A stretch of DNA of 64,000 nt, from assembly GCF_000585335.1 (NCBI RefSeq), contig NZ_KK073872.1:1293283-1357282 (forward strand), in the 5' to 3' direction. Shown one piece after another: positions 13,011 through 27,296 of this stretch. Positions within the stretch are counted from its first letter, which is position 1. Every line of letters begins with the position of its first letter. The notes below the pieces were generated by a model that ran no database searches, was not told the DNA's origin, and worked only from the letters and a program-made list of their open reading frames with translations. The position numbers and the translations under genes are program-made. The stretch is from Cloacibacillus evryensis DSM 19522 (lineage in GTDB: Bacteria > Synergistota > Synergistia > Synergistales > Synergistaceae).

Positions 13011-13439
13011 TTATTCTTCCCGCGTCCTTAATACATGCTCTTCGCCGTCTGTCATCAGAAAGGCAGCCCAAAGCTCAAACGCCTCTTTTATATTCCTGGG
13101 ATCGTGCCCCGTCAGCACCCTTATCTTTTTGAGCCGGTACTGAAGGCTGTTGCGGTGAAGGTGCATTTTTCCCGCCGTCTTTGAACAGTTAAAAGGCGAT
13201 TCGCAGAAATTCATGAAGGTCTCGCGGAGTGTCTCAAAGTCGTTTCTTTCGGTAAGTTCCGCAAGGATATGCGCAGAGTAGTCTTCTTTAAAGGGCTCAG
13301 GAAGGCCCTTCAGCATTTCAGCTACTCCGGCCTGTTCCGCGTTTTCGGCATTGCCGATGAAATCCAGGCCGTCTATGTGCGTCAGTCTGTAAGCTTCCAA
13401 ACTTTTTTCGTTGACTGCGGCGCTTTCCATCTTCAGCAT
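13011..13439 (-). CDS. Truncated CdaR/PucR-type regulator (C-terminal HTH part)
   Basis: About 142 aa whose last third is the PucR/CdaR C-terminal helix-turn-helix: NCSKTAGKMHLHRNSLQYRLKKI followed by LTGHDPRNIKEAFELWAAF. Full-length sugar-diacid regulators are around 350-400 aa with an N-terminal sensor, so most of the protein is missing. The ATG at 13439 follows the GrdB-like stop by 7 nt with an AAGAAAG-like site; the frame is open further upstream, but that would overlap the neighbouring gene. It may be a functional short regulator or a remnant. Confidence 0.6.
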   Translation of the reverse strand: MLKMESAAVNEKSLEAYRLTHIDGLDFIGNAENAEQAGVAEMLKGLPEPFKEDYSAHILAELTERNDFETLRETFMNFCESPFNCSKTAGKMHLHRNSLQYRLKKIRVLTGHDPRNIKEAFELWAAFLMTDGEEHVLRTREE

Positions 13440-13446
13440 TCTTTCT

Positions 13447-14304
13447 TCAATTGACGATAAGGCAGGCGTCTTCGTCGGGCACTTCTTCAAGAAGCGCGAG
13501 CGCCCTGTCAAATAGCCTTTTGCGCCATTCTGCCTCCTGCTCCGGCGGGATGTCGGGATTCCCGAATACATGGCTTATATTGCTGCCCTTTAGTATCCGG
13601 CTGCATCCGACACCTTCCGATATCTGCGTCAGGTTTGTTACATGCACCACTGGGATACCGGCAATTTCGATCTCGCACGCCATATAGGCGCCGCATCTTG
13701 TGCTAGTGCCGCAGGTTGAAGTAAGTATGACCCCGTCGACTCCGTTATGCCTGAGTGAACACGCGATGCCCTGCCCCATTTCCCGGCTTTTTTCGACAGA
13801 CTGCATTACTCCGGCGGTCGAATAGAACGCCTCCAGCAGCGCGCCTATCCTTCCGCCGGCTTCGGCTGTTCGCGCGGCGTCAAGGGGAACGAGCCTGTTG
13901 GGGTCCTCAAGTACGAATTTATTGTAATACCCCTGGTGGCTCACTTCGTAATCTTCGGGCGACAGGCGCTTTTTCCCTTTGAACCGGTAGAGACGGAACT
14001 TGTCGGCGGCGACTGGGGGCTGGCAGTCGGGATTACCTGCCGGAACAAGCCCGCCGTCCGTAACGAGTGCGATCTTCGCCTCTTTCAGCGCTTTTGAAAG
14101 CTTTGCTACCGGTATTGACTGCGGCGGCGCGATACAAACTTCGCTCTTGAATCCCCGGCCGTGATATTTTGCCAGCAGCATATCGATACCTCTGACGGCC
14201 GCCGGAGTATTGTAATCTATCTCCGCGCCGGTCACGGCGGGCTTTGGAAGCCGACTGTCACGGCAACGCGGAGTCCATATAATATCGGGATATCGTTTAG
14301 GCAT
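13447..14304 (-). CDS. GrdB-family protein, Cys variant lacking the N-terminal third
   Basis: A 285-aa homologue of the selenoprotein subunit of glycine/sarcosine/betaine reductase protein B. It aligns from residue 27 onward with residues from about 175 of the Sec-containing paralogue nearby (shared IALVTDGGLVP.GNPD, DPNRLVP, YSTAGVM, ISHVFG). The position equivalent to Sec350 is Cys198 (TGC, 13711-13713) in TSTCGTSTRCGA. About 152 N-terminal residues of the family are absent and replaced by a short unrelated start. GAGGT precedes the ATG. The C-terminal catalytic region looks intact, so it is probably expressed rather than decayed. Confidence 0.78.
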   Translation of the reverse strand: MPKRYPDIIWTPRCRDSRLPKPAVTGAEIDYNTPAAVRGIDMLLAKYHGRGFKSEVCIAPPQSIPVAKLSKALKEAKIALVTDGGLVPAGNPDCQPPVAADKFRLYRFKGKKRLSPEDYEVSHQGYYNKFVLEDPNRLVPLDAARTAEAGGRIGALLEAFYSTAGVMQSVEKSREMGQGIACSLRHNGVDGVILTSTCGTSTRCGAYMACEIEIAGIPVVHVTNLTQISEGVGCSRILKGSNISHVFGNPDIPPEQEAEWRKRLFDRALALLEEVPDEDACLIVN

Positions 14305-14412
14305 GCTTTTACCTCACAATCTTTGTCCGCCGGCGCTGCGCCGTCCGGCTTACTGCTTTTCTATTATTTTGACCTTTGGCGAAGAACCTCTCCGCTAACT
14401 GTATTCAACCGT

Positions 14413-14970
14413 TCAGGCAGCCTCGAGCGGGAATGCAAGGTTCGCCTTTATCTTTTTGAGCTTTTCAAAATAGATCATATAATTTGCCTGCATCCCCCCG
14501 CGCACCCATTCCATGATCACGCCGACATATGCGTAGGCTTCAAGGCGGCCCAGTATATAGAGTTCGTCTTCGGCAAGCTTGTATCCGACTTGAGTATATA
14601 CGGTAAGGATATGTATCTTCATAAGTTCGAAATAAGATTCCACGAGCGAATCCGAAAGCGAATTCTGCCCGACATAATTAAAGACTTCCATATAAAAATC
14701 GCGGTTCTGAAGCATGTACTTGCAGAGATTAACAAACCCGTCCAGATATCTTTCAGGGTCTGAGAACGTATTTATGACCGGCAGCGTCTCAGAATAGAAT
14801 ATCCAGTGTACCAGGTCATATTTATCGCGGAAATGGTAGTAAAAAACGTTCCTGCTCACTCCGCACTGAGAGGTTATGTCTTTCACTGTTATCTGTCCGA
14901 GCCTTTTCTTCTTCATGAGCTCTTTCAGACATACGCCGAGAGCAGTCTTTGTAATATCAGTTTTCGGCAT
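14413..14970 (-). CDS. TetR-family transcriptional regulator
   Basis: A 185-aa TetR protein. The N-terminal helix-turn-helix (about 24-50) reads QITVKDITSQCGVSRNVFYYHF followed by the usual KYDLV. The C-terminal ligand domain resembles the DhaS/TetR_C_8 type. It lies between the Sec-GrdB gene and the Cys-GrdB-like gene on the same strand, so it is a candidate regulator of both. GGGGAAGGG is placed upstream of the ATG. The ligand is unknown. Confidence 0.88.
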   Translation of the reverse strand: MPKTDITKTALGVCLKELMKKKRLGQITVKDITSQCGVSRNVFYYHFRDKYDLVHWIFYSETLPVINTFSDPERYLDGFVNLCKYMLQNRDFYMEVFNYVGQNSLSDSLVESYFELMKIHILTVYTQVGYKLAEDELYILGRLEAYAYVGVIMEWVRGGMQANYMIYFEKLKKIKANLAFPLEAA

Positions 14971-15005
14971 TTTCCCTTCCCCTCTCAGTATTCTTTTCCT
15001 GTTGT

Positions 15006-15036
15006 GCCGTCCGCCGCATAAGCTGCGGCGGGCGGC
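15006..15036 (-). terminator. Strong hairpin between grdB-like gene and tetR
   Basis: A 12-bp stem with one mismatch (GCCG.CCGCCGCA with its complement) and a 5-nt loop lies in the 96-nt gap. There is no T-tract on the minus strand, so it may be a processing or attenuation structure that separates expression of the reductase genes from tetR. Confidence 0.5.
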
Positions 15037-15066
15037 GTATTATCTTATTACCGCGCTTTCGGAAGG

Positions 15067-16383
15067 CTACTCTTTGATTATTGCGCGTTCCCCTTCCGCG
15101 GGCGTCTCTTCGAGCATATGGAGCGCCATCTCTACGCGCTTTTCTCTGTATGCCTTTTCACTGGGCAGAGGCAGCGTCGGATCTCCGAAAACATGCAGGA
15201 CGCTGTTTCCGCGGAGTATCCTGTTCGAGCCGATGCCCTCCGCGATCTTTGTAAGATTTGTCACTTGGATGATGGGGATTCCTGCGCGCTGTATCTCTTT
15301 TGTGATCATGGACCCGCCACGACTGCTCGTTCCTCAGGTGGAGGTTTCGATCGCGGCGTCGCAGCGGTCGGCGATCAGCTCCTTGGCGATGCCTTCGCCG
15401 AATTCCTTGCATTTTTCCATAGGCGTCATGACGCCTGCCGTTGAGTAGATGACATCGTCGACGCTGCCGATGATCCCCTCATCCGCCAGCTTGCGCAGCG
15501 CGTCTACGGGGACGAGTCTGTTTGGATCCTGAAGCACGAAGGCGTTGTTGTACCCCTGATGGCTGACTTCCCAGTCTTTAGCGTTCAGCGCATCCATGTC
15601 CTTGATCGAATAGCGTTTGTAGGCTCTTGAGTTTGTCGGCACCTGATTGTCCGGATTGCCCAGCGGCACAAGCCCTCCGTCCGTCACAAGCCCTATCCTG
15701 CATTCCGAAAGAGGCTTTTTGAGGACGGGGATCGGTATCTCTTCATGGTTTGGCATAATGACTTCGGTGTGGTAGGCTTTGCCCTCATGTTTTGCCAGAA
15801 GCATATCAATGCCTCTCTGCGCTGCGGGGATCGTATAGTCTATTATCACCGCGGGGCCGCTTCCATGATAGCGCTCCGCTTTTCCATCGCGGATCGCGTC
15901 GCCTGCGATGAGGCGCTTCGCAAAGGCTGCGATCTCGCCGATGACTTTTACCAGGTTTCTTGCGTTGTTGTCGCTCTGCAGGATATAGCACCGATTCTTA
16001 AACAGGTCGGTTCCCGGGTTCTCCGCAAAGAGCGCAGTTACCGCCGGTATCCTCAGCTCTTCCGTAACGGCGGCCGTCGTTGAGCCGCAGCCGAGCCCGT
16101 AACGCCCCGCGTTGAACCCTGGGCCCGCTACAAACAGGTCGGCCCCGGCGCCGCGCACGATATCTATTATTTGCGGGATTATCTCCTCGGGATGCTCCGC
16201 TATCGTATTGTCGCCGCAGACGATAGTCTTTACGATCTCGTAATCCGGTCCCAGCGCTTTTGCCAGCGCCGCTCCGGGACCGGCCGCGCCCTCTTTTACC
16301 GAAAGGCCGACGCTTGCCGTATCTTCGCCGCCCATTCCGGCATAGAACTGGTTAATGTAATGAACTACCTTTTTCTTAGTCAT
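15067..16383 (-). CDS. GrdB-family reductase selenoprotein (in-frame UGA = Sec350)
   Basis: Homologue of the selenocysteine subunit of glycine/sarcosine/betaine reductase component B (438 aa with readthrough). The N-terminus VVHYINQFYAGMGGEDT and the later FNAGRYG, ENPG and LVTDGGLVP.GNPD are family hallmarks. Two open stretches are joined through TGA at 15334-15336 (complement), giving TSTUGTSSRGG; Sec falls at residue 350, the family position. The strand continues without another stop to 15067 and retains family sequence (AGIPIIQVTNLTKIAEGIGSNRI). The two cysteines that normally follow the Sec (U..C..C) are Ser and Gly here. The ATG at 16383 overlaps the GrdE-like gene by 8 nt. GrdA, GrdC and GrdD are not in the window. 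Substrate unassigned. Confidence 0.9.
15334..15336 (-). other. UGA selenocysteine codon
   Basis: The TGA is preceded by codons for IETST and followed by GTSSRGGSMITKEI, matching the Sec position in the GrdB family. A small ACGA/TCGT stem with a GCAG loop begins 3 nt after the codon; a bacterial SECIS must lie just downstream, but its exact fold was not resolved by eye. Confidence 0.87.
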
Positions 16384-17647
16384 TGTTAGTTCCCTCCCTC
16401 GGTATATCGCTGTCCGTCGTAACATAGCAGTCTCCGAGCTGCGACCAGATGCCCTGGTAGCAGAAGTTCGTCGTATGCTTGAACGGCCCCCGCGGGTCCA
16501 GTCCCAGCAGGCACGGGACGTTGGCCTTTTCGCCGACGAGCCGATCGACTTTAGGATGATCGAGGTCCCAGTTCCTGCCGCTGTTGATAACCGCGTCAAC
16601 TTTCGGGTCCGCGATGACGAGCATGTCGCCCGGCTCATAATTGCTGACCGCAGACAAGTTCAGCGCCGCGGTCATGCCTAATTTCTGGCACCAGTTGAAG
16701 GCGAGAGCCGAGTCAAGCTGGCAGTGGCCCATCCCTGATTTATTCAGCATTACGCAGTCGGCTCCGAGCGTATCTTTGCAAAGCGTTGCTGAAATCATGC
16801 TCATAGTGTCTTTTCCGTCGATCTTCATAACGTTATTGTCAAAGACGACGCCGACAAACTCCAGGTCCTTGCCGTGGCGCTTCATCAGCTCTTTGATATA
16901 AACTTCGTTCTGAAGGAAATAATTCGGTTCCCAGTAACGCCATATCATCGCGCCGTCCAGTATCTCCGTAGGCTGGACGACGATGGGGAGGAAATTCAGC
17001 GCGCTCTGGCCGTAGTAGAGGAAATTCCACGTATCGTGGGAGGCCATGTGGGTAACGAGATAGGCGACCTTCGGCAGTTTCTTCTCCGCGGGGACAGGCT
17101 TGCGCTCGAATACTTCCGTTTCGTCGGGCTCAAGGCCTATTGTCAGCTTCGCAAGAAAAACGTTGACCGACAGCGACGCCCGTTTAAGAGCTTCGGCATA
17201 ACTTGCGTCTGAAACGCCTTCTCCCGGCGTCGCGTCTATGCATACGTGGAAATGACGCGAGAAATTGCTGTATTTGGCGCATGGGCCGCCCATATCCATA
17301 TAATATTTAACGTTGCACTTAGCGTAATAAATGTCTGAGACCACGACGCCTTTAAGCGCCACTGTGCGCCCTTCGCCCGCCGGGGCAAGCTTTCCCCAAA
17401 TACCGGGATATGATTCCTCTGGGTGATCGGCTCTGCAGCGCGGCTGCATGACGTCATGGAGCCCGAGGATGCGGCAGTTTTCACCGGGGCGCACCAACTG
17501 TATGTCAAGCGAACCGAAAAGATCGCTTGCGGCCTCTTTGAGCAGGTCTTCCTTGTTTACTGTAAGGACGCCCTTATCAAGCGAAGTTTTTTCTCCGAAT
17601 TTTACATCGCGGACTTTTATATAGTCTATCTGGAGTCTTTTAGTCAT
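16376..17647 (-). CDS. GrdE/GrdG/GrdI-family reductase component B, alpha/beta precursor-like
   Basis: A 423-aa homologue of the precursor subunit of glycine/sarcosine/betaine reductase protein B: VRDVKFGEKTSLDKGVLTVNKEDL at the N-terminus, GRTVALKG near 94, PTEILDGA at 226-233 and LMKRHGKDLEFVGVV near 254-268. In GrdE as I recall it, the segment after DGA contains the Cys at which the proprotein is cleaved to form a pyruvoyl group (SGNCVSACDKN). Here it is replaced by WRYWEPNYFLQNE, with no Cys between 137 and 289. Self-processing is therefore unlikely. It is translationally coupled to the Sec-GrdB gene. Confidence 0.85.
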   Translation of the reverse strand: MTKRLQIDYIKVRDVKFGEKTSLDKGVLTVNKEDLLKEAASDLFGSLDIQLVRPGENCRILGLHDVMQPRCRADHPEESYPGIWGKLAPAGEGRTVALKGVVVSDIYYAKCNVKYYMDMGGPCAKYSNFSRHFHVCIDATPGEGVSDASYAEALKRASLSVNVFLAKLTIGLEPDETEVFERKPVPAEKKLPKVAYLVTHMASHDTWNFLYYGQSALNFLPIVVQPTEILDGAMIWRYWEPNYFLQNEVYIKELMKRHGKDLEFVGVVFDNNVMKIDGKDTMSMISATLCKDTLGADCVMLNKSGMGHCQLDSALAFNWCQKLGMTAALNLSAVSNYEPGDMLVIADPKVDAVINSGRNWDLDHPKVDRLVGEKANVPCLLGLDPRGPFKHTTNFCYQGIWSQLGDCYVTTDSDIPREGTNND

Positions 17648-17665
17648 TTTAACACGCTTCCTTCC

Positions 17666-18916
17666 TTATCCTCTGCACGGAATGCCGTTCTGCTTGTATA
17701 TCTCTCCGTCTTTCATGACAAAGCTGATATTTTCTGTGCTCAGATCGCCCATATCTTTTAACGGATCTCCGTTGATCGCTGTGATATCGGCAAGCTTTCC
17801 CGGTTCAATGGTGCCGAGGCGGTCGTCCCATTTCATAAACTCCGCGCAGTACCGAGTTGCGCCGAGCAGAGTATCTTCGGGCGAGATGCCTGCCTCCGTC
17901 ATGCATTTGAACTCGCCGTGCTGTTTCCCGTGGACCATCAGCGGCGTGCCGGTATCTGTGCCGAAAAGGCAGCGGACTCCGCGCTCATATATTTTCTTGA
18001 TATTCTTGGCATGCTGAGGCGAGAGAAACGCCGCCTTCGCAACCGTGGCGTCGCCCACTCCGCGCTCTTTGCCGTGCGTCATAACGCCGCGGAACGTAAG
18101 CAGCGTTGGCACCGCGCATACGTTGTTTTCAAGCATGTAGTCGATGCATTCGTCGTCGGCCAGCGTGCAGTGTTCGATCGAAGAGATGCCCGCGCGGGCT
18201 GCGTCTTTAATGCCGGAGGTGCCGTGCGCATGGCAGGAGATGACGACGTTGTGCATCTTTGCCACGTCGACGGCCGCTTTTATCTCGTCATAGTCCATAT
18301 TCTGCCCGCCGATATCTCCGCTGTTGCTGTAGACGCCGCCGGTGACCATGATCTTGAGGAAATCGACGCCGAACTTGAGCATCGTTCTGCAGGCCGTCCG
18401 CACTTCGTAAGGCCCGTCGGCCGAATTGACCGGTTTGAAGTTCTGCTGCCCGAAAGAATCCTGGGGATAACTTGTCGACATATGCCCGCCGGTCTGCGTG
18501 ATATACATTCCGCTTGTAAAGATGCGCGGGCCCCATGTTATTCCTTTGTTGACCGCGTCGCGGATGCACTGGCTGCCGCGGACTGAAGTGAAGCCGAGGT
18601 CGCGGACGGTGGTGAATCCGCCCATAAGGTCGTCCTGCACATTTCTAACGGCCTTGACGCAGACCAGCGCCTCCGGTTCGTTGACTTCGCTGATGGAAAG
18701 CCCTCCGCCGAACGCGATATGGACATGGCCGTCGATCAGCCCCGGCATTACAAACTTGTCGGACAGGTCGATCAGTTCTTCGCCCGGAAGCGGCTTGTAA
18801 TCCTCTGCGCTTATCACTTCTGTGATCTTGCTGCCTTCGACGCGGACGACTTTATTCTTTTCCGCATTGCCGTCGCGCGCGCTGAAAAGCTTTCCGCACT
18901 TGATTGCTGCTTTCAT
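17666..18916 (-). CDS. Metal-dependent amidohydrolase
   Basis: A 416-aa amidohydrolase-superfamily enzyme of the imidazolonepropionase/prolidase-like group. Metal and catalytic motifs are visible in order: HVH at 64-66, the Lys in FLKIMVTGG that is usually carboxylated, His in SCHAHGTSG, His in SIEHCT and Asp in FGTDTGTPL. It would hydrolyse a C-N (amide or cyclic amide/imine) bond in the cytoplasm. It is 18 nt upstream of the GrdE-like gene, so it may release or open the substrate of that reductase. GGAGGT precedes the ATG. The exact substrate is unknown. Confidence 0.85.
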   Translation of the reverse strand: MKAAIKCGKLFSARDGNAEKNKVVRVEGSKITEVISAEDYKPLPGEELIDLSDKFVMPGLIDGHVHIAFGGGLSISEVNEPEALVCVKAVRNVQDDLMGGFTTVRDLGFTSVRGSQCIRDAVNKGITWGPRIFTSGMYITQTGGHMSTSYPQDSFGQQNFKPVNSADGPYEVRTACRTMLKFGVDFLKIMVTGGVYSNSGDIGGQNMDYDEIKAAVDVAKMHNVVISCHAHGTSGIKDAARAGISSIEHCTLADDECIDYMLENNVCAVPTLLTFRGVMTHGKERGVGDATVAKAAFLSPQHAKNIKKIYERGVRCLFGTDTGTPLMVHGKQHGEFKCMTEAGISPEDTLLGATRYCAEFMKWDDRLGTIEPGKLADITAINGDPLKDMGDLSTENISFVMKDGEIYKQNGIPCRG

Positions 18917-19068: not shown

Positions 19069-19161
19069 TCACCTGCCGCAGCTGCACACCAGCGATATTT
19101 CCAGCAGGCCGCTTTTCGCTTCAAGCGGAGGACGGTATACTGTTTCTTCCAGCGTAGTCAT
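19069..19161 (-). CDS. Small 30-residue ORF coupled to the MFS gene, C-terminal CSCGR
   Basis: The ATG (19159-19161) overlaps the MFS stop as ATGA, the classical coupling arrangement. The frame encodes MTTLEETVYRPPLEAKSGLL plus EISLVCSCGR, then TGA. It has no homologue that I recognise. The two closely spaced Cys at the C-terminus after a short leader-like peptide recall small metal-binding or modified peptides, but no maturation enzyme is nearby. Its reality rests on the overlap only. Confidence 0.35.
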   Translation of the reverse strand: MTTLEETVYRPPLEAKSGLLEISLVCSCGR

Positions 19162-20402
19162 TGCTGTCTGCCTCTCTTCAGCGGCAAGCCGTTGGGACAG
19201 AAGCGGCGGCCTGCGCATGCGGCGCGTTTCTCCCCGGGCAGGATGCAGACCAGGATCACGCCGATAAATGAGACGGCGCCTGCGCAGAGGATAGCGGCCG
19301 ATATGCCTGCATTCCTCAGGACAAGCGACGCTCCCAAAGAGCCGGCGGCAAGGCCCGCCATCGTCAGAGATAGGACGGTCCCGACGTTGTCAGTGCCAAA
19401 AGAATCCGCGATCGTCGGGGTAAAGCAGGCCTGTATCCCGCCGTAAGAAAAACTCAGCATACAGAAGCAGAGGATATAAAGCGCGCCGGAAGAGACAGAC
19501 AGTACGACCGCGGCGGCGGTTGAGATAAGGAATCCGATAGTAAAGGCCGTTTTGCGCCCCGTAACATCGCTCAACGCCGGAAGTATGAAACGGCCTGCGA
19601 TCTGGCAGAGCGACGCCAGGCTCACGCCTAACGCGGCCGTGGAAAAGGCAAGGCCCTTTTCTGCCCCAAACGTAACGAACAGGGCGCTGAGAAGCAAATA
19701 TGCGGGCACTGCGCAGAAATAAAGCCCCGTCAATATCCAGAACGTTCTGGAACAAAAAATCTCGTTTATCTTGAGCGCTGCGTTTTTTTGTCCGACATCC
19801 TTTAATTTAACTCCGTCTGCGGGCGGATCTTTCAGCATGAGCAGGCCCACCGCGCCGGCAGCCGCATACACCGGGATCTGGGCAAAGTACGTTCCAGAAA
19901 ATCCATACTTCCTTAACCATATACCCAGTACGGGGCTGAAAATTGCAGCGGACAGCCCCATCATCCCTAAAGTCAGGCCGGAAGCAACCCCTTTTTTATC
20001 GGGGAACCATTTCGGCATGAGCGCAAGCACTGCATTGTAAATGATGCCGTCTCCTATGCCGAATATGACGCCGTATGTAAACGGCATTGCCCAAAAGCAT
20101 TCCGGCGGCAGGAGCGCCGTAAGCGCCAATCCTGCGATCATCAGCCCGTAACCCGCCGCCAGCGTTGCCGGAAGAGAACTTCTGCGCCTTATCATGGCCC
20201 CGGTAAAGTTTCCTATACAAAACGCCGCTATCAGAATCGAAAAAGGAAGCCCCGCCGCCGCTGAATCGACTCTGAAGTACTGCATTACGACCGGCTGTAT
20301 GAGGCTGTAATCATAATAGATCCCCATTACCAGCATACAGGCCATTGCAGAAGCCAACACCGCATATCTGTTCGTATCTCTGCAGAATTTCATTGAACAC
20401 AC
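19158..20402 (-). CDS. MFS transporter, OFA (oxalate/formate antiporter)-like
   Basis: A 414-aa integral membrane protein with about 12 hydrophobic segments and the MFS features GVIFGIGDGIIYN and LMPKWFPDKKGVASGL that are typical of the OFA/monocarboxylate group. It should exchange or import a small organic acid. It stands between the Grd-like cluster and the sugar-acid operon on the same strand, with 120 nt separating it from the lactonase gene, so it may serve either pathway. The substrate cannot be told from sequence. Confidence 0.82.
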   Translation of the reverse strand: MCSMKFCRDTNRYAVLASAMACMLVMGIYYDYSLIQPVVMQYFRVDSAAAGLPFSILIAAFCIGNFTGAMIRRRSSLPATLAAGYGLMIAGLALTALLPPECFWAMPFTYGVIFGIGDGIIYNAVLALMPKWFPDKKGVASGLTLGMMGLSAAIFSPVLGIWLRKYGFSGTYFAQIPVYAAAGAVGLLMLKDPPADGVKLKDVGQKNAALKINEIFCSRTFWILTGLYFCAVPAYLLLSALFVTFGAEKGLAFSTAALGVSLASLCQIAGRFILPALSDVTGRKTAFTIGFLISTAAAVVLSVSSGALYILCFCMLSFSYGGIQACFTPTIADSFGTDNVGTVLSLTMAGLAAGSLGASLVLRNAGISAAILCAGAVSFIGVILVCILPGEKRAACAGRRFCPNGLPLKRGRQQ

Positions 20403-20522: not shown

Positions 20523-21578
20523 TTAAAACTCAGCAAATATAATGCACACCGGGCTTCCGGTGTTTACGGCGTCTCCCCGTTTTTCAAGCGCTCCGTTTTC
20601 TTTGATCTCATATCTTACGATCGTGTCGGAATCCTCGTTGGCCGCGTAAAGAGTGCGGCCGTCCGGGCCCAGCGTTATGAATCTCGGTGTTCTGCCGTAC
20701 GAAGAGATCCATTCCGAGGCAGAGATCATTCCCGTCGCCGGGTCTATTGCGAAATGCGCGATCGAATCATGTATCCTGTTTGACACATACAGATTCATGC
20801 CGTCGCCGGTGATCACTATGCCGCTTGCCTGGCCGTTCCCTGTATATGTATCGGGGAGCACCGGCAGTATCTGTTTTGGCGTAAGCGTGCCTGAGGCGGG
20901 ATCGTAATGATGGAAGCAGACCGTGTTGTCTTTTTCGTTTACAAGATAGCAGTATCCGCCGTTGGGATGGAACGCCATATGCCTTGCCTCCGCGCGGTCG
21001 CGCGTTTTGAGGGTGGTTTTTTCGCGAAAGGACCCGTCTGCAGGGTCGAATTCAAAGACTGTCGTCTTTGATAAACCCGCCTTGCGGCCCTGCGCTGGGA
21101 CGATAAGAAAATTCTCGCCCCTGTCAAAAACAGTCTGGTGCGGGTGCGATATCTCTCCGGGGCCTATGCCCGAAATAAAGGCCTGCCCGACCATATCCGA
21201 TAGGGACCCGTCCGCGTCTTTCCTGAAAGAGACGACGCTTCCCGTCTGGAGGTTTGCGGCGATCAGCCAGCGGTCCGTCTTGTCCGGCGTTATGAATACG
21301 GGGTTCTCGCCGCCGGTGGAGACGGTATTGAGCTTGAACAGGCCGCCGTCGCTCTTATCTACTTTAAATGCCGTCGCTTCGCTGTAGTCTCCGTGCACCG
21401 TATAAAGATGCTCATGGGCCTTATCAAAGCAAAGATAAGAGGGATTGGGAGTTATGGGGAAACCGCCGCATTTTGTCCACTCGCCCGTGATTTCATCAAT
21501 GGTGAATATTTCTATCCCTTTGCCGCGCGCGTTTCTTTTCTGCGTCGTCCGGCATCCAACATAGGCGTAAACAGTCAT
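20523..21578 (-). CDS. 6-phosphogluconolactonase-like beta-propeller lactonase
   Basis: A 351-aa seven-bladed propeller of the YbhE/Pgl lactonase family: YAYVGCRTTQ start, NPSYLCFD, HPHQTVF, AEARHMAFHPNG, GNGQASGIVIT and the terminal GRTPRFI...LYAANEDSDTIV segments mark the blades. Family members hydrolyse sugar lactones. The gene lies in an operon with a dehydratase and dehydrogenases for sugar acids, so a lactone of an aldonate or uronate is the likely substrate rather than the pentose-phosphate intermediate. The MatC-like gene is 18 nt upstream. Confidence 0.85.
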   Translation of the reverse strand: MTVYAYVGCRTTQKRNARGKGIEIFTIDEITGEWTKCGGFPITPNPSYLCFDKAHEHLYTVHGDYSEATAFKVDKSDGGLFKLNTVSTGGENPVFITPDKTDRWLIAANLQTGSVVSFRKDADGSLSDMVGQAFISGIGPGEISHPHQTVFDRGENFLIVPAQGRKAGLSKTTVFEFDPADGSFREKTTLKTRDRAEARHMAFHPNGGYCYLVNEKDNTVCFHHYDPASGTLTPKQILPVLPDTYTGNGQASGIVITGDGMNLYVSNRIHDSIAHFAIDPATGMISASEWISSYGRTPRFITLGPDGRTLYAANEDSDTIVRYEIKENGALEKRGDAVNTGSPVCIIFAEF

Positions 21579-21596
21579 CTTATTTTCCTCCTCGGC

Positions 21597-22862
21597 CTAT
21601 CCGCAGATAGGTTTGAATATGAACGCCGCAATGACAGCGACAAAAGCTACGAAACAGAATGAGAGTATGAAACATCTTGCAAAAAGCTTCTGCTGTTCCT
21701 TAACGTCGCAGCGCGCTTCCTGTGAATATACGGCCAGGATGAGGCTGCCTCCGGTCGAGAGCGGGCTGATCCCCGCAACGGTGGCGGCTCCCACTATGCC
21801 CATCGTCATTTCCATTACGCCCGGCATCCCGCTTCCGAGCTGCTGCGCGATCCGCGGCAGCGTCGGGATTAGCGTCGGGAATACGACTCCGTTTGCGGAG
21901 CTGAACCATGAGAGGATGCCTCCCGTCAGCGCCATCACCGAGGGCGCCGTCGCCTTGTTCATGACGGAGGCAAGCATGTTTGAAAGAAGCGCGATGCCGC
22001 CAAGTTCCTGCGTCACGTTCATCAGTACGGAGACGCCGGAGATGAGGATGAGCACGTTCCACTGGATGAGTTTGAGAGCCTTCTGCTCATTGGCCGCGCC
22101 GAAAAGCACGAGCACAAAACCGAGAGTGAAGGAGACGAGCCCTACGTCCCATTTAAGGAGGACTACGGCGCATACCAGAAACAGCAGCGAGGCAAGCCCC
22201 ATTTTCTGCGAATTATTGAAGGCGGGCAGCGATTCGCTCTTTATAGTGTCATCCGGCGAAAGCCTATAACCTTTGAACCAGATATATGTGACCAGCGCGC
22301 AGAGGAAATTTACCGCCGTTATCCCAAAGAGCAGGATCCACTGCGAGTTCGGAACAGATATATTTTGCGCCGCAAACAGGTCGCTTATAATGATGCCCGT
22401 CAGCGCGATCGGCGATACGGTGCCGCCGACCGCCCCGAGAAACGCCGGCGTGGCGAGAAGCAGCGGGTCCACCTTCATCTGCACCGCGAGCGTGACCGCG
22501 AACAATATGGTGACCGCCTGCGCTGAGATGGCTCCGGGGCCGGCCGCCGAAAGCGCGTAGGCCGTTACGTAGAGAATGATCGGTATCAGAAACGCGTTCT
22601 TCCCGACCGCCGCGATTATCTTCTGCGAGAGAAGTTCAAGCGTCTTATTCTCCTGCAGGAGCGCAAAGAAGAACATCGTGCCAAGCAATGTGATGAACAG
22701 CTTTGTCGGGAATCCTGCGAATATCACTTTAAGCTTCAGGCCGCCGATAAGCGCAAGCAGGAGCACTAGCCCGAAGGCCGCTATCCCTACGTTTATCTTT
22801 TTTATGAATCCTATTGCAATCGCTCCGATAAGGAACCCGAGAGCTATTATCTGCATTGTCAT
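21597..22862 (-). CDS. MatC-like dicarboxylate/organic acid carrier
   Basis: A 421-aa very hydrophobic protein with 10-12 membrane segments, resembling the dicarboxylate carrier MatC/SLC13-like group: an N-terminal INVGIAAFGLVLLLALIGG stretch, GPGAISAQAV and a C-terminal GISPLSTGGSLIL. It probably imports the acid that the operon degrades. It is flanked by the lactonase and the dehydratase in a tight minus-strand operon. It is related to, but not the same as, the TRAP-type DctM subunits. Confidence 0.82.
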   Translation of the reverse strand: MTMQIIALGFLIGAIAIGFIKKINVGIAAFGLVLLLALIGGLKLKVIFAGFPTKLFITLLGTMFFFALLQENKTLELLSQKIIAAVGKNAFLIPIILYVTAYALSAAGPGAISAQAVTILFAVTLAVQMKVDPLLLATPAFLGAVGGTVSPIALTGIIISDLFAAQNISVPNSQWILLFGITAVNFLCALVTYIWFKGYRLSPDDTIKSESLPAFNNSQKMGLASLLFLVCAVVLLKWDVGLVSFTLGFVLVLFGAANEQKALKLIQWNVLILISGVSVLMNVTQELGGIALLSNMLASVMNKATAPSVMALTGGILSWFSSANGVVFPTLIPTLPRIAQQLGSGMPGVMEMTMGIVGAATVAGISPLSTGGSLILAVYSQEARCDVKEQQKLFARCFILSFCFVAFVAVIAAFIFKPICG

Positions 22863-22887
22863 TCAGTCCATCTCCTTTTATGTGTGA

Positions 22888-24525
22888 TCAGAAAAGCCAG
22901 AGCGCGCCTTCATCCGAACCGCTGACGCATTCTCTGTACCGCCTGAGCATGCCTTCGGCTTTATGGTCGGGCCGCGCCGCGCTGCGGAGCCTTTCCCGTA
23001 TCTCTTCGTCGGTCAGCTCGACCTGTATCGTTCCTTCGTCAAGGTCTATGTCAACCATGTCGCCGTTTCTTACCGCCGCGATGGGGCCGCCTTCCCAGGC
23101 TTCAGGAGATATGTGCCCGACACACGGGCCGCGCGTGGCGCCGGAAAAACGCCCGTCCGTTATCATGGCTGCCGACTTGTGCAGCCCCATCCCTACGAGC
23201 ATCGCCGCGGGAATAGACATCTCGCGCATTCCGGGGCCGCCCTTCGGCCCTTCATAACGGATGACCAGCACCGAGCCGGGCTTTACCTGCCCGCCTTCAA
23301 GGTGTTTCAGAACGTCCTCTTCAGATTCGAAGACGACGGCGGGGCCGCGGTGTTTGAACATCGACGCCTCGACGCCGCTTTTTTTAACGACGCAGCCCTT
23401 GGGGGCAAGATTGCCGTAAAGGACCGCAAACGTCCCGTTTTTCAGCAGCGCATTATCTTCTTCACATATCACGGATGCGTCAAAGGGAGGGCGTATTTCG
23501 TCGCGCAGCGTTCCGCCTGTTATTCTTGGCGTGTCGAGGTCGAGATGAGAACGTATTGCCCACATAGTCGCCGGCACTCCGCCTGCGTTATGATAATCGC
23601 TCATGTTGAAGTCCGAGGACGGCTTGAACTTTGCGATAACGGGGACCTCTTTCTGTATCCTGTCGAAGTTCTGAAGCGTAAGAGGTATCCCCAGCGTTTT
23701 TGCGATAGCGAGCACATGCAGCGCCGCGTTTGTCGAGCCGCCCGTTGCGGAGATGTGCTTTATACCGTTTTCAACCGAGCGCCTGTTCATGAAATACGAA
23801 AAGGGCTTGCCTTCATGAACGAGTTCAACTATCCGTTCGCCCATATCACGCGCCTGTTTTGCCTTGGCGGACGAACAGAAGAACTCCGTCGCGGAACCGA
23901 AGGGGCAGACGCCCGCCGCCTCTGCGAAGACGGCCATCGTGTTTGCCGTTCCGTACATTGAACAGGTCCCGCACGAATGGCAGATATTAGCTTTGAAATC
24001 GCGGAACTCATCTTCCGTGACCGTTCCTTTTGAACGGCTTCCTATCGCCTCTTTAAGGTCGGAGGTGATATAGGTCTTTCCTTTGTTTTCATAAGGAACC
24101 ATAGCACCAGCTGTCAAAAATACGGACGGGCGGTCAAGCAGCGCGGCCGCCATCAGCATGCCGGGGACGATCTTGTCGCAGGAGCAGAGGAAGACGAGGC
24201 CGTCGAAGCCGTGGGCGCGCGCCATCGACTCGATCGAAGCGGCGATAAGGTCGCGCTGCGGCAATACATAATTCATGCCGCGTATCTGCGCCATTCCGTC
24301 GCACGGCGCCGGCACGTTGAACTCCGCGGGCGTACCTCCGGCGGCCCATACTCCCTCTTTTACGCGCTCCGCCAGCTCCCGCAGCGGACGGTGTCCGGGG
24401 TTTACCTCGTTCCACGAATTGACGATCCCAATGAGCGGTTTTTCAATGTCTTTGTTGCGGAATCCCGCCGCGTTCATAAGGCCGATATAGTAAGCTTCCT
24501 GAGAGTTCGTGTCTGCTTTGATCAT
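22888..24525 (-). CDS. IlvD/Edd-family dehydratase (probable sugar-acid dehydratase)
   Basis: A 545-aa dehydratase with the family Fe-S cysteines in [17 protein letters not shown] and [16 protein letters not shown], and the C-terminal [21 protein letters not shown]. Members include dihydroxyacid dehydratase (valine/isoleucine synthesis), phosphogluconate dehydratase and aldonate dehydratases. No ilv genes are nearby. The neighbours are a lactonase, a carrier and three dehydrogenase/isomerase genes, so dehydration of an imported sugar acid to a 2-keto-3-deoxy acid is the favoured role. IlvD itself cannot be excluded. Confidence 0.87.
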
Positions 24526-24530
24526 GACGG

Positions 24531-25418
24531 TCAGCCCTTTCTGAATTCCGTTCCCAGAAGTTTTTCAAAAACTTTTATCATAGCGCCTTTTCCGAGCTCT
24601 CCGTAGCCTGAACGAAGCGCCTGCTGGTAGGTCGCCGTGGCTGCGGCGAGCACCGGCATCGGGATCGACTGCGACGCCGATATCTCAGCGGCGCTGACAA
24701 GGTCTTTATATGCGTTCTTCATCGCGTATCCTTCTGAGAAGTTCCCTTCGAGGGCGCGGGGCAGGAAAAATTCCGAGGCGTAACTGCGCCCCGTGCCGCT
24801 GTTTATGACGGACGCCGTCTTTTCCGGATCGAGCCCCATCAGAGCGGCCATAGGAACGACCTCCGCGATCGCGGCGGCGTTGATGTCGAAGAGCAGCTGG
24901 TTGATAAGCTTCGTAAGCTGCCCGGCTCCGTTCTTTCCCATATAAAGGATATTTGTGCCGATCATTTTCAGCAGTGGCTCTATACGGCGGAAGGTTTCTT
25001 CCTTCCCTCCGCACATGACCGTGAGCGTACCGTCTATCGCGCGCGCCTCCATACCGGATATCGGGCAGTCCATGAACTCTATCCCGGTCTCCGCGCAGCC
25101 CTCCGCCACATCCATCGCGGCTTTCCAGCTGATAGTGCTGAGGTCAGCAAGCACAGCGCCCTTTTTCATTTTGGATATAAGCCCGTTTTTGCCGAGCGCG
25201 GTCTTCTTTACGATATCGCCGTTAGGGAGACAGAGAAAGATAACGCCGGCCTCGCAGATATCGTCGGTATTGCCCGTCGTCTTTACATTTTTCAGCCCGC
25301 TGAACTTCGCAAGGTTCGACTCGTTTATATCAAATACCGTCAGTTCATCGCCGCCTTTTGCAAGGTTCATCGCAATCGGCGCTCCCATCTTCCCCAGGCC
25401 TGCGAAAGAAATCTTCAT
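24531..25418 (-). CDS. 3-hydroxyisobutyrate/tartronate-semialdehyde-type dehydrogenase
   Basis: A 295-aa beta-hydroxyacid dehydrogenase: N-terminal Rossmann motif [10 protein letters not shown], the FLCLPN strand, [11 protein letters not shown] substrate loop and the catalytic Lys in GQLTKLINQ. It reduces or oxidises a small hydroxy-aldehyde/acid such as tartronate semialdehyde or 3-hydroxyisobutyrate, using NAD(P). It begins 5 nt before the dehydratase gene in the transcript direction, with a good GGAGGT ahead of its own ATG. Confidence 0.88.
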
Positions 25419-25423
25419 AACTC

Positions 25424-26236
25424 TTACCTCCCCGTTTCTTGTTTGACGTTATTCAGGAAATCGAATGCACGCCGCGCGGCGGTCTCCTGATCCGGTTCCT
25501 GTTTTATTTCTGTTGAGTACCACCCGTCGTATCCGCATGCGGCGATAGTCCCGATGATCTCTCTGCACGGCATCGCGCCGTCTCCGGGCGCAAGGCGCTT
25601 TTCTCCCGAACAGTGCACGAGGCCGAAATCCACCGCGTTTTTAACTATTGAGGCAAATAGAAGCGGTTCGTTGATTTGCGCGTGAAACATATCGAAGATG
25701 AATTTCATATTCTCGATGCCGGCCTCCTTCTTAAAGCGCTGCGCCTGCTCCAGGTCGTTCATATAATTTGAATTTGACGCGCCCTGCGGCTCGACAAGGA
25801 AGGGAATGCCGGCGGTTGTACACTGCTCCGAGATATCCCTAAATGCTTTTTCGGCGTTCAGGAGAGAATCAGCCTCTTCTGAGACGCGGCCGCGGAAACT
25901 GCCGATACAGAACGGCGCGCCGAGCTCGGAGGCAAATCTTATAACTTCCCCGGCTCTTTCAAGCGCGGCTGCGCGGACCTCCGGGTCGGGCGACGAGATA
26001 AAGAGTTTGTCCGCTTTGACCGCCGGAGTGAGGCCCACCGCCGCGATCTTTATTCTGTATTTTCCGCAGAGACGCTTTGTTTCATCCGCAAGTTCCGGCG
26101 CAGGACGGCGCACCATAAGCTCGGCACCCTCGTACCCGATCTTCGCAAGCAGCGCGAAACTTTCTTCGTAAGGCCCGTAAAGCCCCATTATCCTGACGCC
26201 CGCGTCCGGCGTCGTCAGCGGGTAGCAGAGTCTCAT
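25424..26236 (-). CDS. Xylose-isomerase-like TIM-barrel protein (sugar phosphate isomerase/epimerase)
   Basis: A 270-aa AP-endonuclease-2-fold protein of the sugar isomerase/epimerase group, related to hydroxypyruvate isomerase and dehydrogenase-associated isomerases. Metal-ligand candidates are Glu in FLVEPQG, Asp/His in FIFDMFHAQ, His in LVHCSG and Glu in YSTEIKQEP. The ATG at 26236 (MRLCYPLTTP) is preferred, since the longer frame overlaps the previous gene. It sits 1 nt after the Ldh_2 gene. It would interconvert an intermediate of the acid pathway. Confidence 0.83.
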   Translation of the reverse strand: MRLCYPLTTPDAGVRIMGLYGPYEESFALLAKIGYEGAELMVRRPAPELADETKRLCGKYRIKIAAVGLTPAVKADKLFISSPDPEVRAAALERAGEVIRFASELGAPFCIGSFRGRVSEEADSLLNAEKAFRDISEQCTTAGIPFLVEPQGASNSNYMNDLEQAQRFKKEAGIENMKFIFDMFHAQINEPLLFASIVKNAVDFGLVHCSGEKRLAPGDGAMPCREIIGTIAACGYDGWYSTEIKQEPDQETAARRAFDFLNNVKQETGR

Positions 26237-26237
26237 A

Positions 26238-27296
26238 TCAGTCGAACTTGGGGCCGAGAGCAATTTTATAAAGCTCGGCCGTCTGCCTGATATCTTTTAC
26301 GATATTCTCTGAAAGCGGGATGCCGTTTTCCATGCGCGCCTTCGTCTTTTCCGCCTCCGGTTCGCCCGGCATCATGATCCTTTTGCAGCCGTCCGCTTTC
26401 GGCAGGTTTGTCAGCCTGCGGTAGAATTCGTCCATGCGCGCCGCAAGTTCTTCACGCGGGATAAAGAGGTCGGGCTTCATGAAGAAGAAGATATGCCCGA
26501 CGTTCTGCGGAGCGCTGTGGTCGAAGTAGAGGCTCTTGACGTCGCCGCCGTAATTGGCTCCCGTGAACATGCCGCTCAGCAGATCCATCAGCATGGCAAG
26601 CGCCGCGCCTTTTGGGCCGCCGAACGGAAGGCAGACGCCTGCGAATGCCTTCTTTGCGTCGGTCGTCGGCTTGCCGTCGGAATCGAGCGCGAGCCCAAGC
26701 GGGATCTCTTCATTATTCGTTGCGGCGACTCTGATCTTGCCGCGCGCGATAATAGTCATCGCCATGTCGAGTATGTAATCCGGAGAATTTTTGCCGCCCG
26801 GTATGCCTGCCGCCAGCGGGGCCGCGCCGAGAAAGGCGACCTTTGCGCCGACAGGTGCAAGCGCGGGCGAAGAGTTGGTAAACGCCATGCAGACGTATCC
26901 GGCCTCTACCGCCTGCTGGACATAGGACGCTGACATTCCGAAGTGGGTGCTTTTGTGAACGCCGACGACGGCGATGCCCGTCTTTTCCGCAAGGGCGGTC
27001 CCCTCTTCAACGGCGCGGTGCGAGGCGAGGAATCCCATTCCGTCGTCCCCGTCCAACAGGATCGCGGCGGGCGCCGTCTGCGTGCTTTTTATCTCAGGCC
27101 GCGGGTTGACGACACCTCTTCTTATCCTTTCAAGATACATGGGGATCCTTGACACGCCGTGCGAAGTCAGGCCCCGGAGATCCGCCGATACAAGGTCGCG
27201 CGCGACCGTCCCCGCGTCTTCCTTCCTCAGCCCGCCCGCTTCAAAAAGTGAAGCGGCCATGCCGATCAATTCTCTGTGGCTGAACACTCTGTCCAT
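26238..27296 (-). CDS. Ldh_2-family malate/L-lactate/diketogulonate-type dehydrogenase
   Basis: A 352-aa member of the Ldh_2 (malate/L-sulfolactate/ureidoglycolate/2,3-diketogulonate) oxidoreductase family: the DLRGLTSHGVSRIP motif near 38, KSTHFGMS near 115, the GGPKGAALAMLMDLLSGM stretch and a C-terminal PGEPE. It uses NAD(P) to interconvert a 2-oxo acid and hydroxy acid. It is the promoter-proximal gene of the operon, with AAAGGAG ahead of the ATG, and faces the LysR gene across 130 bp. Confidence 0.88.
   Translation of the reverse strand: MDRVFSHRELIGMAASLFEAGGLRKEDAGTVARDLVSADLRGLTSHGVSRIPMYLERIRRGVVNPRPEIKSTQTAPAAILLDGDDGMGFLASHRAVEEGTALAEKTGIAVVGVHKSTHFGMSASYVQQAVEAGYVCMAFTNSSPALAPVGAKVAFLGAAPLAAGIPGGKNSPDYILDMAMTIIARGKIRVAATNNEEIPLGLALDSDGKPTTDAKKAFAGVCLPFGGPKGAALAMLMDLLSGMFTGANYGGDVKSLYFDHSAPQNVGHIFFFMKPDLFIPREELAARMDEFYRRLTNLPKADGCKRIMMPGEPEAEKTKARMENGIPLSENIVKDIRQTAELYKIALGPKFD

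What the first reader, a model, noticed from the sequence alone, without database searches (positions are those of the whole stretch)
13011..18916. Candidate undescribed Grd-like reductase system with amidohydrolase and two regulators
Amidohydrolase, GrdE-like, Sec-GrdB-like, TetR, Cys-GrdB-like and a CdaR-type fragment are collinear and partly overlapping. Protein A (GrdA) and protein C (GrdC/GrdD), needed for acetyl phosphate formation in glycine reductase, are absent. The amidohydrolase suggests that the reducible substrate is liberated from an amide or ring compound. Together with the two altered motifs, this points to reductive cleavage of an unknown compound.
Basis: inference. Interest (0 to 1): 0.75.

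Follow-up and report, generated by a model that had tools for sequence, protein, structure and literature searches.

The report
Fluoroacetate reductase (far) gene cluster
This gut-type bacterium carries the already described gene set that strips fluorine from the poison fluoroacetate using a selenium enzyme borrowed from glycine metabolism; the part not described before is a half-sized copy of that enzyme paired with a gene switch, which probably acts as the system's chemical sensor.

Summary
The genes are real, but the system is not undescribed. The GrdE-like gene matches NCBIfam NF053623 'fluoroacetate reductase subunit FarE' at 912 bits (cutoff 675). Proteins A and C are absent only locally; grdA, grdC and grdD lie elsewhere on the same chromosome, and all FarEB genomes tested (21) carry a selenocysteine GrdA.

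The amidohydrolase is not a conserved part. It has no close homologue in 185 Synergistota genomes and sits where the radical-SAM gene farC stands in the sister species; 30 codons of farC remain. The C-terminal CdaR piece is a local fragment.

One thing here appears new. The 'Cys-GrdB' is not a broken gene. It is an ancient half-length FarB paralogue under purifying selection, adjacent to the DhaS-like TetR gene at 20 of 27 FarEB loci and fused to it once. I propose it is the regulator's ligand sensor. FarEB loci also occur in Lachnospiraceae and other Clostridia, with carboxylate transporters and varied hydrolases, so the everyday substrate may not be fluoroacetate.

The parts
19158..20393 (-). 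farA: MFS transporter of the oxalate/formate and monocarboxylate type
   Evidence: PF07690; TIGR00890 143 bits, NF049980 L-lactate MFS transporter 176 bits, both below cutoff; 50-54% identical to farA-position genes beside farE in L025, L026, L034, L036, L051
19069..19161 (-). remnant of farC (radical SAM): first 30 codons then a stop, ATGA overlap with the end of farA
   Evidence: reads MTTLEETVYRPPLEAKSGLLEISLVCSCGR* against L025 farC MATLEETVYRPPLENESALLEISLGCSYGRCTFCRY; L025 farC is PF04055 Radical_SAM
17666..18916 (-). amidohydrolase (COG1228/Xaa-Pro dipeptidase-like, PF01979), probable late arrival in the farC slot
   Evidence: metal-ligand motifs intact (GHVH, K188, CHAH, EH, GTD); no homologue above 37% identity in 185 Synergistota genomes
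16376..17647 (-). farE: fluoroacetate reductase subunit, GrdE family, pyruvoyl-forming site replaced by WRYWEPNY
   Evidence: NF053623 912 bits, cutoff 675; site comparison
15067..16383 (-). farB: selenoprotein, GrdB family, TGA (Sec) at 15336-15334, motif STUGTSSRGGSM
   Evidence: PF07355 406 bits; Sec codon conserved in every FarB locus examined; SelA in the genome
14413..14970 (-). TetR-family regulator of the DhaS type
   Evidence: PF00440 and PF14278; TIGR02366 96 bits (cutoff 129); best PDB sequence hits 4mk6 and 2iu5 (DhaS)
13447..14304 (-). half-length GrdB-like protein with Cys in place of Sec; ancient FarB paralogue, proposed ligand sensor for the TetR
   Evidence: covers PF07355 positions 180-347 only; conserved in 20 loci, tree, dN/dS about 0.1, fused to TetR in L026
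13011..13439 (-). C-terminal fragment of a CdaR/PucR-type regulator, probably a remnant and not part of the system
   Evidence: only PF13556 HTH_30 matched; not present at the sister genome's locus

Best explanation
This is the fluoroacetate reductase (far) operon of a Synergistota bacterium in the same genus as a 3.6-Mb complete genome that fits Cloacibacillus porcorum; by its missing farC and hutI-like gene it most likely is C. evryensis (species name inferred). FarA imports the haloacetate anion, perhaps in exchange for fluoride. The FarE-FarB complex binds it, and the selenolate of FarB (Sec at codon TGA 15336-15334) displaces fluoride directly. Because a C-F carbon needs no Schiff base, FarE has dispensed with the pyruvoyl cysteine of GrdE. 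The carboxymethyl group then passes to the shared selenoprotein GrdA and is released by GrdC/GrdD as acetyl phosphate, giving acetate and ATP, with thioredoxin re-reducing GrdA. These shared parts are encoded elsewhere on the chromosome. The TetR and the half-length Cys-GrdB together are proposed to sense the substrate, as DhaS and DhaQ do for dihydroxyacetone. Shown here: family identity, motif losses, presence of Sec machinery and proteins A/C, synteny. Shown in the literature for relatives: fluoride release and strong induction by fluoroacetate. Inferred: carboxymethyl transfer, sensor role.
For: FarE equivalog match 912 bits against cutoff 675. PMC10838667 describes farACEB with the same gene kinds, the same two motif losses, a C. 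evryensis far operon without the rSAM gene, and hutI and acrR genes in the cluster maps. Pyruvoyl site replaced by [WF]RYWE in all FarE homologues in which it was read, canonical SGNCVSACDK kept in two own-genome GrdEs. Sec codon kept in every FarB read. GrdA with one in-frame TGA in all FarEB genomes tested, 22 records of which G187 and G116 appear to be the same genome. In Clostridiaceae BL-3 (L049) trxA-grdA-grdC-grdD sit directly before farE-farB. Own grdC, grdD and selA found.
Against: No biochemistry on this genome. Fluoroacetate specificity rests on growth, transcript and fluoride data from three Synergistota species; no mutant or purified enzyme is reported in the parts of the paper that I read. 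FarEB homologues at 60-85% identity live in gut and oral Clostridia with no known fluoroacetate exposure, so fluoroacetate may be a side substrate. Leong et al. themselves suggest that an amine-containing compound may be preferred.
Confidence: 0.85

Rival explanations
1. FarEB is a general reductase of 2-substituted short carboxylates whose everyday substrate is an unidentified compound released from an amide or ester conjugate; fluoroacetate is reduced by chance similarity.
For: FarEB in many Clostridia and one Olsenella MAG. Lactate/glycolate-type permease LctP in 11 loci, MFS in 6, TRAP plus lactate-racemase-like protein in L030: all carboxylate handlers. Hydrolases of several families beside farEB: M20, alpha/beta hydrolases, PRK09237-type, and Amidohydro_1 here; 13 of 74 near against at most 5 of 75 far genes, p 0.047.
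Against: The enrichment is not corrected for shared ancestry and is marginal. No single hydrolase family is universal. The window's amidohydrolase is unique to it in the phylum. The operon is reported to be induced thousands-fold by fluoroacetate and not highly by glycine (PMC10838667).
Confidence: 0.3
2. The system is an undescribed reductase that acts on a compound set free from an amide or ring by the amidohydrolase.
For: The amidohydrolase is codirectional, 18 bp from farE and has intact metal ligands.
Against: It is absent from the other FarEB loci examined; it replaces farC, of which a remnant remains; the farE/farB pair belongs to a named family.
Confidence: 0.05
3. The half-length Cys-GrdB is a decaying fragment of farB with no function.
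For: It lacks the N-terminal half and Sec, and evolves faster than farB.
Against: Intact at 20 loci; its clade with FarB excludes all other GrdBs and the split is old; dN 0.25 against dS 2.5 to the sister genome; the 54 invariant positions include the active-site Cys; the AlphaFold model folds well (pLDDT 82, pTM 0.78).
Confidence: 0.05
4. The half-length Cys-GrdB is an enzyme subunit (PrdB-like) that takes part in catalysis.
For: PrdB also covers only the C-terminal half of GrdB; the Cys in the catalytic position is invariant in 20 loci.
Against: It travels with the TetR gene rather than with farEB: same strand as TetR in almost all loci even where TetR points away from farEB (L031, L034, L051), and fused to TetR in L026. 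FarEB loci without it exist (L030, L047, L048, L049, L052).
Confidence: 0.3

Closest known systems
farACEB fluoroacetate reductase of Cloacibacillus porcorum MFA1, C. evryensis and Pyramidobacter piscolens (PMC10838667; NCBIfam NF053623)
   Same: farA, farE and Sec-farB order and motifs; loss of pyruvoyl cysteines and CxxC; C. evryensis reported to lack farC; hutI and acrR genes named in the cluster maps
   Different: a 30-codon farC remnant remains here; the conserved half-length Cys-GrdB is not discussed in the main text that I read (supplements and figures not read)
Glycine/sarcosine/betaine reductase protein B (GrdE/GrdB, GrdG/GrdF, GrdI/GrdH)
   Same: same two-subunit selenoprotein architecture feeding shared GrdA, GrdC and GrdD
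   Different: below the equivalog cutoffs; no pyruvoyl-forming Cys, no CxxC next to Sec
DhaS/DhaQ regulator pair of the dihydroxyacetone kinase operon
   Same: TetR of the DhaS type next to a paralogue of the substrate-binding enzyme subunit that is thought not to catalyse
   Different: TetR scores under the DhaS equivalog cutoff (96 against 129); the paralogue is a half GrdB, not a DhaK; interaction not shown
D-proline reductase PrdB
   Same: a GrdB relative covering only the C-terminal half
   Different: scores far under the PrdB cutoff (74 against 300); Cys instead of Sec; linked to TetR and farEB

Membership tests
Fluoroacetate reductase (far) | FarE equivalog score above the curated cutoff | tested here: met
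   912.4 against 675 bits
Fluoroacetate reductase (far) | FarE without the pyruvoyl-forming cysteines | tested here: met
   DGAMIWRYWEPNYF in place of DGAIVSGNCVSACDK
Fluoroacetate reductase (far) | FarB with Sec but without CxxC | tested here: met
   STUGTSSRGGSM against STUGTCTRCGATM
Fluoroacetate reductase (far) | farA MFS antiporter in the operon | tested here: met
   MFS at 19158-20393; homologues at farE in five other loci
Fluoroacetate reductase (far) | farC radical SAM gene | tested here: not met
   only a 30-codon remnant; the paper reports the gene missing in C. evryensis, which still degrades fluoroacetate, and missing with farA in P. piscolens, so it is not essential to membership
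Fluoroacetate reductase (far) | shared proteins A and C in the genome | tested here: met
   grdA, grdC, grdD
Fluoroacetate reductase (far) | fluoride release from fluoroacetate | not testable with these tools
   needs culture or enzyme
Glycine/sarcosine/betaine reductase protein B | equivalog score of either subunit | tested here: not met
   GrdG 195/780; GrdF 400/800, GrdH 367/775, GrdB 350/602 bits
D-proline reductase | PrdA/PrdB equivalog scores | tested here: not met
   PrdA 19/700; PrdB 88/300 and 74/300 bits
DhaS/DhaQ-type regulator | TetR of the DhaS family | tested here: inconclusive
   TIGR02366 95.7 against 129; nearest PDB sequences 4mk6 and 2iu5
DhaS/DhaQ-type regulator | adjacent paralogue of the substrate-binding enzyme | tested here: met
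   half-length FarB paralogue next to TetR at 20 loci, fused once
DhaS/DhaQ-type regulator | ligand-dependent complex that controls the operon | not testable with these tools
   needs binding and reporter assays

The most novel reading that the evidence does not exclude
The half-length Cys-GrdB is an enzyme-derived sensor: a duplicated substrate-binding half of FarB that lost selenium, binds the operon's substrate and works as the co-regulator of the adjacent DhaS-like TetR, with which it is fused in one Pyramidobacter-related genome. As far as I know it would be the first regulator made from a glycine-reductase component, and its ligand would report the true substrate of FarEB in gut bacteria.
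Probability: 0.5. Interest if true: 0.55.

Novelty: already known. Interest (0 to 1): 0.4.

Why it matters
The core is a known but little studied anaerobic route for cutting a C-F bond, relevant to livestock poisoning and defluorination. The sensor protein offers a direct way to find the natural ligand.

Tried and rejected
Undescribed reductase: rejected by the FarE match and the paper. Half-GrdB as pseudogene: rejected by conservation, tree and dN/dS. Amidohydrolase as a defining part: rejected by neighbourhoods. SECIS: RNA folds downstream of the TGA were not better than shuffles and Rfam gave nothing, so Sec rests on the conserved in-frame TGA, family alignment and SelA. Shared operator: TTTTTG(T/C)GCA recurs upstream of several far loci but not upstream of farA or TetR in the window; inconclusive. 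Foldseek of the half-GrdB model against the PDB: nothing significant. The mixed TetR/half-GrdB alignment misaligned the TetR rows, so the fused protein was not folded.

Full report
What is there. On the minus strand the window reads farA (19158-20393), a 30-codon remnant of farC (19069-19161), an amidohydrolase (17666-18916), farE (16376-17647), farB with an in-frame TGA at 15336-15334 (15067-16383), a TetR regulator (14413-14970), a half-length Cys-containing GrdB-like gene (13447-14304) and a C-terminal fragment of a CdaR/PucR-type regulator.

Identity. The GrdE-like protein scores 912 bits against NCBIfam NF053623, fluoroacetate reductase subunit FarE (cutoff 675), whereas the scores to GrdG and PrdA lie far under their cutoffs. 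Leong et al. (PMC10838667) describe the farACEB operon of Cloacibacillus porcorum MFA1: an oxalate/formate-type MFS antiporter, a radical SAM protein, a GrdE-like and a Sec-GrdB-like protein. They report up-regulation of the operon by fluoroacetate of 5,000-fold on average, no strong up-regulation by glycine, fluoride release by three Synergistota species, loss of the pyruvoyl cysteines in FarE and of CxxC in FarB, a C. evryensis operon without the radical SAM gene, and hutI and acrR genes in the cluster maps.

Proteins A and C. The genome is one contig of 3,488,464 bases with 7 GrdE-like and 8 GrdB-like hits. It has one GrdA with an in-frame TGA, a GrdC, a GrdD beside it (44% identical to the GrdD of L049) and SelA. 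GrdA was found in all 14 named FarEB genomes and all 8 Synergistota FarEB genomes (one genome, Pyramidobacter C12-8, appears in both lists). In Clostridiaceae BL-3 (L049) thioredoxin, grdA, grdC and grdD stand directly before farE and farB. This supports FarEB feeding the common acetyl-phosphate route, as Leong et al. proposed; the transfer itself is inferred.

Spread. FarE relatives at 60% identity or more occur in 8 of 185 Synergistota genomes and, in named records, in Lachnospiraceae and other Clostridia and one Olsenella MAG. They are rare: 3 of 397 genomes in the family of G189. In every homologue in which the site was read, the SGNC pyruvoyl site of GrdE is replaced by [WF]RYWE, and the FarB Sec codon is kept. 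FarB has two forms, STUGTSSRGGSM (with MFS farA in most cases) and STUGTSSRCGAVM (mostly with an LctP-type permease).

The amidohydrolase. Among 185 Synergistota genomes only the window has it; the next hits are 34-37% identical. In the sister genome (L025) farC stands between farA and farE; here the first 30 codons of farC remain, then a stop, then the amidohydrolase. The simplest reading is that the amidohydrolase came in where farC was lost. It is intact and related to Xaa-Pro/Xaa-Arg dipeptidases and ochratoxinase in the PDB. Hydrolases of other families do recur beside farEB in other lineages: M20 directly after farB in six Lachnospiraceae-type loci, a PRK09237-type hydrolase after farB in L048 and L049, alpha/beta hydrolases in others. 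Within 3.6 kb, 13 of 74 genes are such hydrolases against at most 5 of 75 farther out (Fisher p 0.047). The five 'far' cases include one M20 that I assigned by eye, and the test ignores shared ancestry, so it is a lead only.

The half-length GrdB and the TetR. This pair is the part I did not find described in the text I read. Of 27 FarEB loci, 20 have both genes, one has TetR only (L047) and six have neither in the DNA fetched. In Synergistota the half-length form occurs only in FarE genomes; in 397 genomes of the family of G189 the same three carry FarE and the half-length gene, each about 2 kb before a Sec-FarB. All 20 copies have Cys, never Sec. In a tree of C-terminal halves, the half-length proteins and FarB form one group apart from all other GrdBs (100/100), and one origin of the half-length form is not rejected. 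Against the sister genome dN is 0.25 and dS 2.5 (saturated), so the gene is under purifying selection. The model is confident over the core. In L026 TetR and half-GrdB are one 525-codon reading frame, a single case from one assembly. The TetR is of the DhaS type by C-terminal domain (PF14278), TIGR02366 score (under cutoff) and nearest PDB sequences. From general knowledge, DhaS works with DhaQ, a paralogue of the kinase subunit DhaK, as co-activator; papers in the library name DhaQ a co-activator. By analogy the half-GrdB is proposed to bind the substrate and control the TetR. That is inference; no interaction or ligand was shown. An enzyme role as in PrdB is the main rival.

Verdict. A correct observation of a known system, with the amidohydrolase over-read and the half-GrdB under-read. 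The species name of the window is inferred, not shown.

Noticed in passing
L026:5409-6986 (-): TetR and half-length GrdB fused in one open reading frame in a Pyramidobacter-related genome (G117), which also holds a second FarEB locus of the other FarB form.
   Followed up: partly
L030:5346-9245: TRAP transporter genes, an alpha/beta hydrolase and a lactate-racemase-like (LarA) protein directly before farE-farB; hints at 2-hydroxy acids or other small carboxylates.
   Followed up: partly
L026, L034, L046, L047, L052: A DSBA-like thioredoxin-fold protein (PF01323) recurs close to farEB; role unknown.
   Followed up: no
window 20523-27296 (-): Upstream of farA a separate run of genes: lactonase-like, MatC/CitMHS-type transporter, and by sequence resemblance an IlvD/EDD-type dehydratase and dehydrogenases; looks like a sugar-acid operon and is not at the sister genome's far locus.
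   Followed up: no
G000:C1:2648279-2650654: A further GrdE/GrdB pair with an unusual site (DGQITNQGGLYGEGYCTYTY) and a long branch in the tree; substrate unknown.
   Followed up: no
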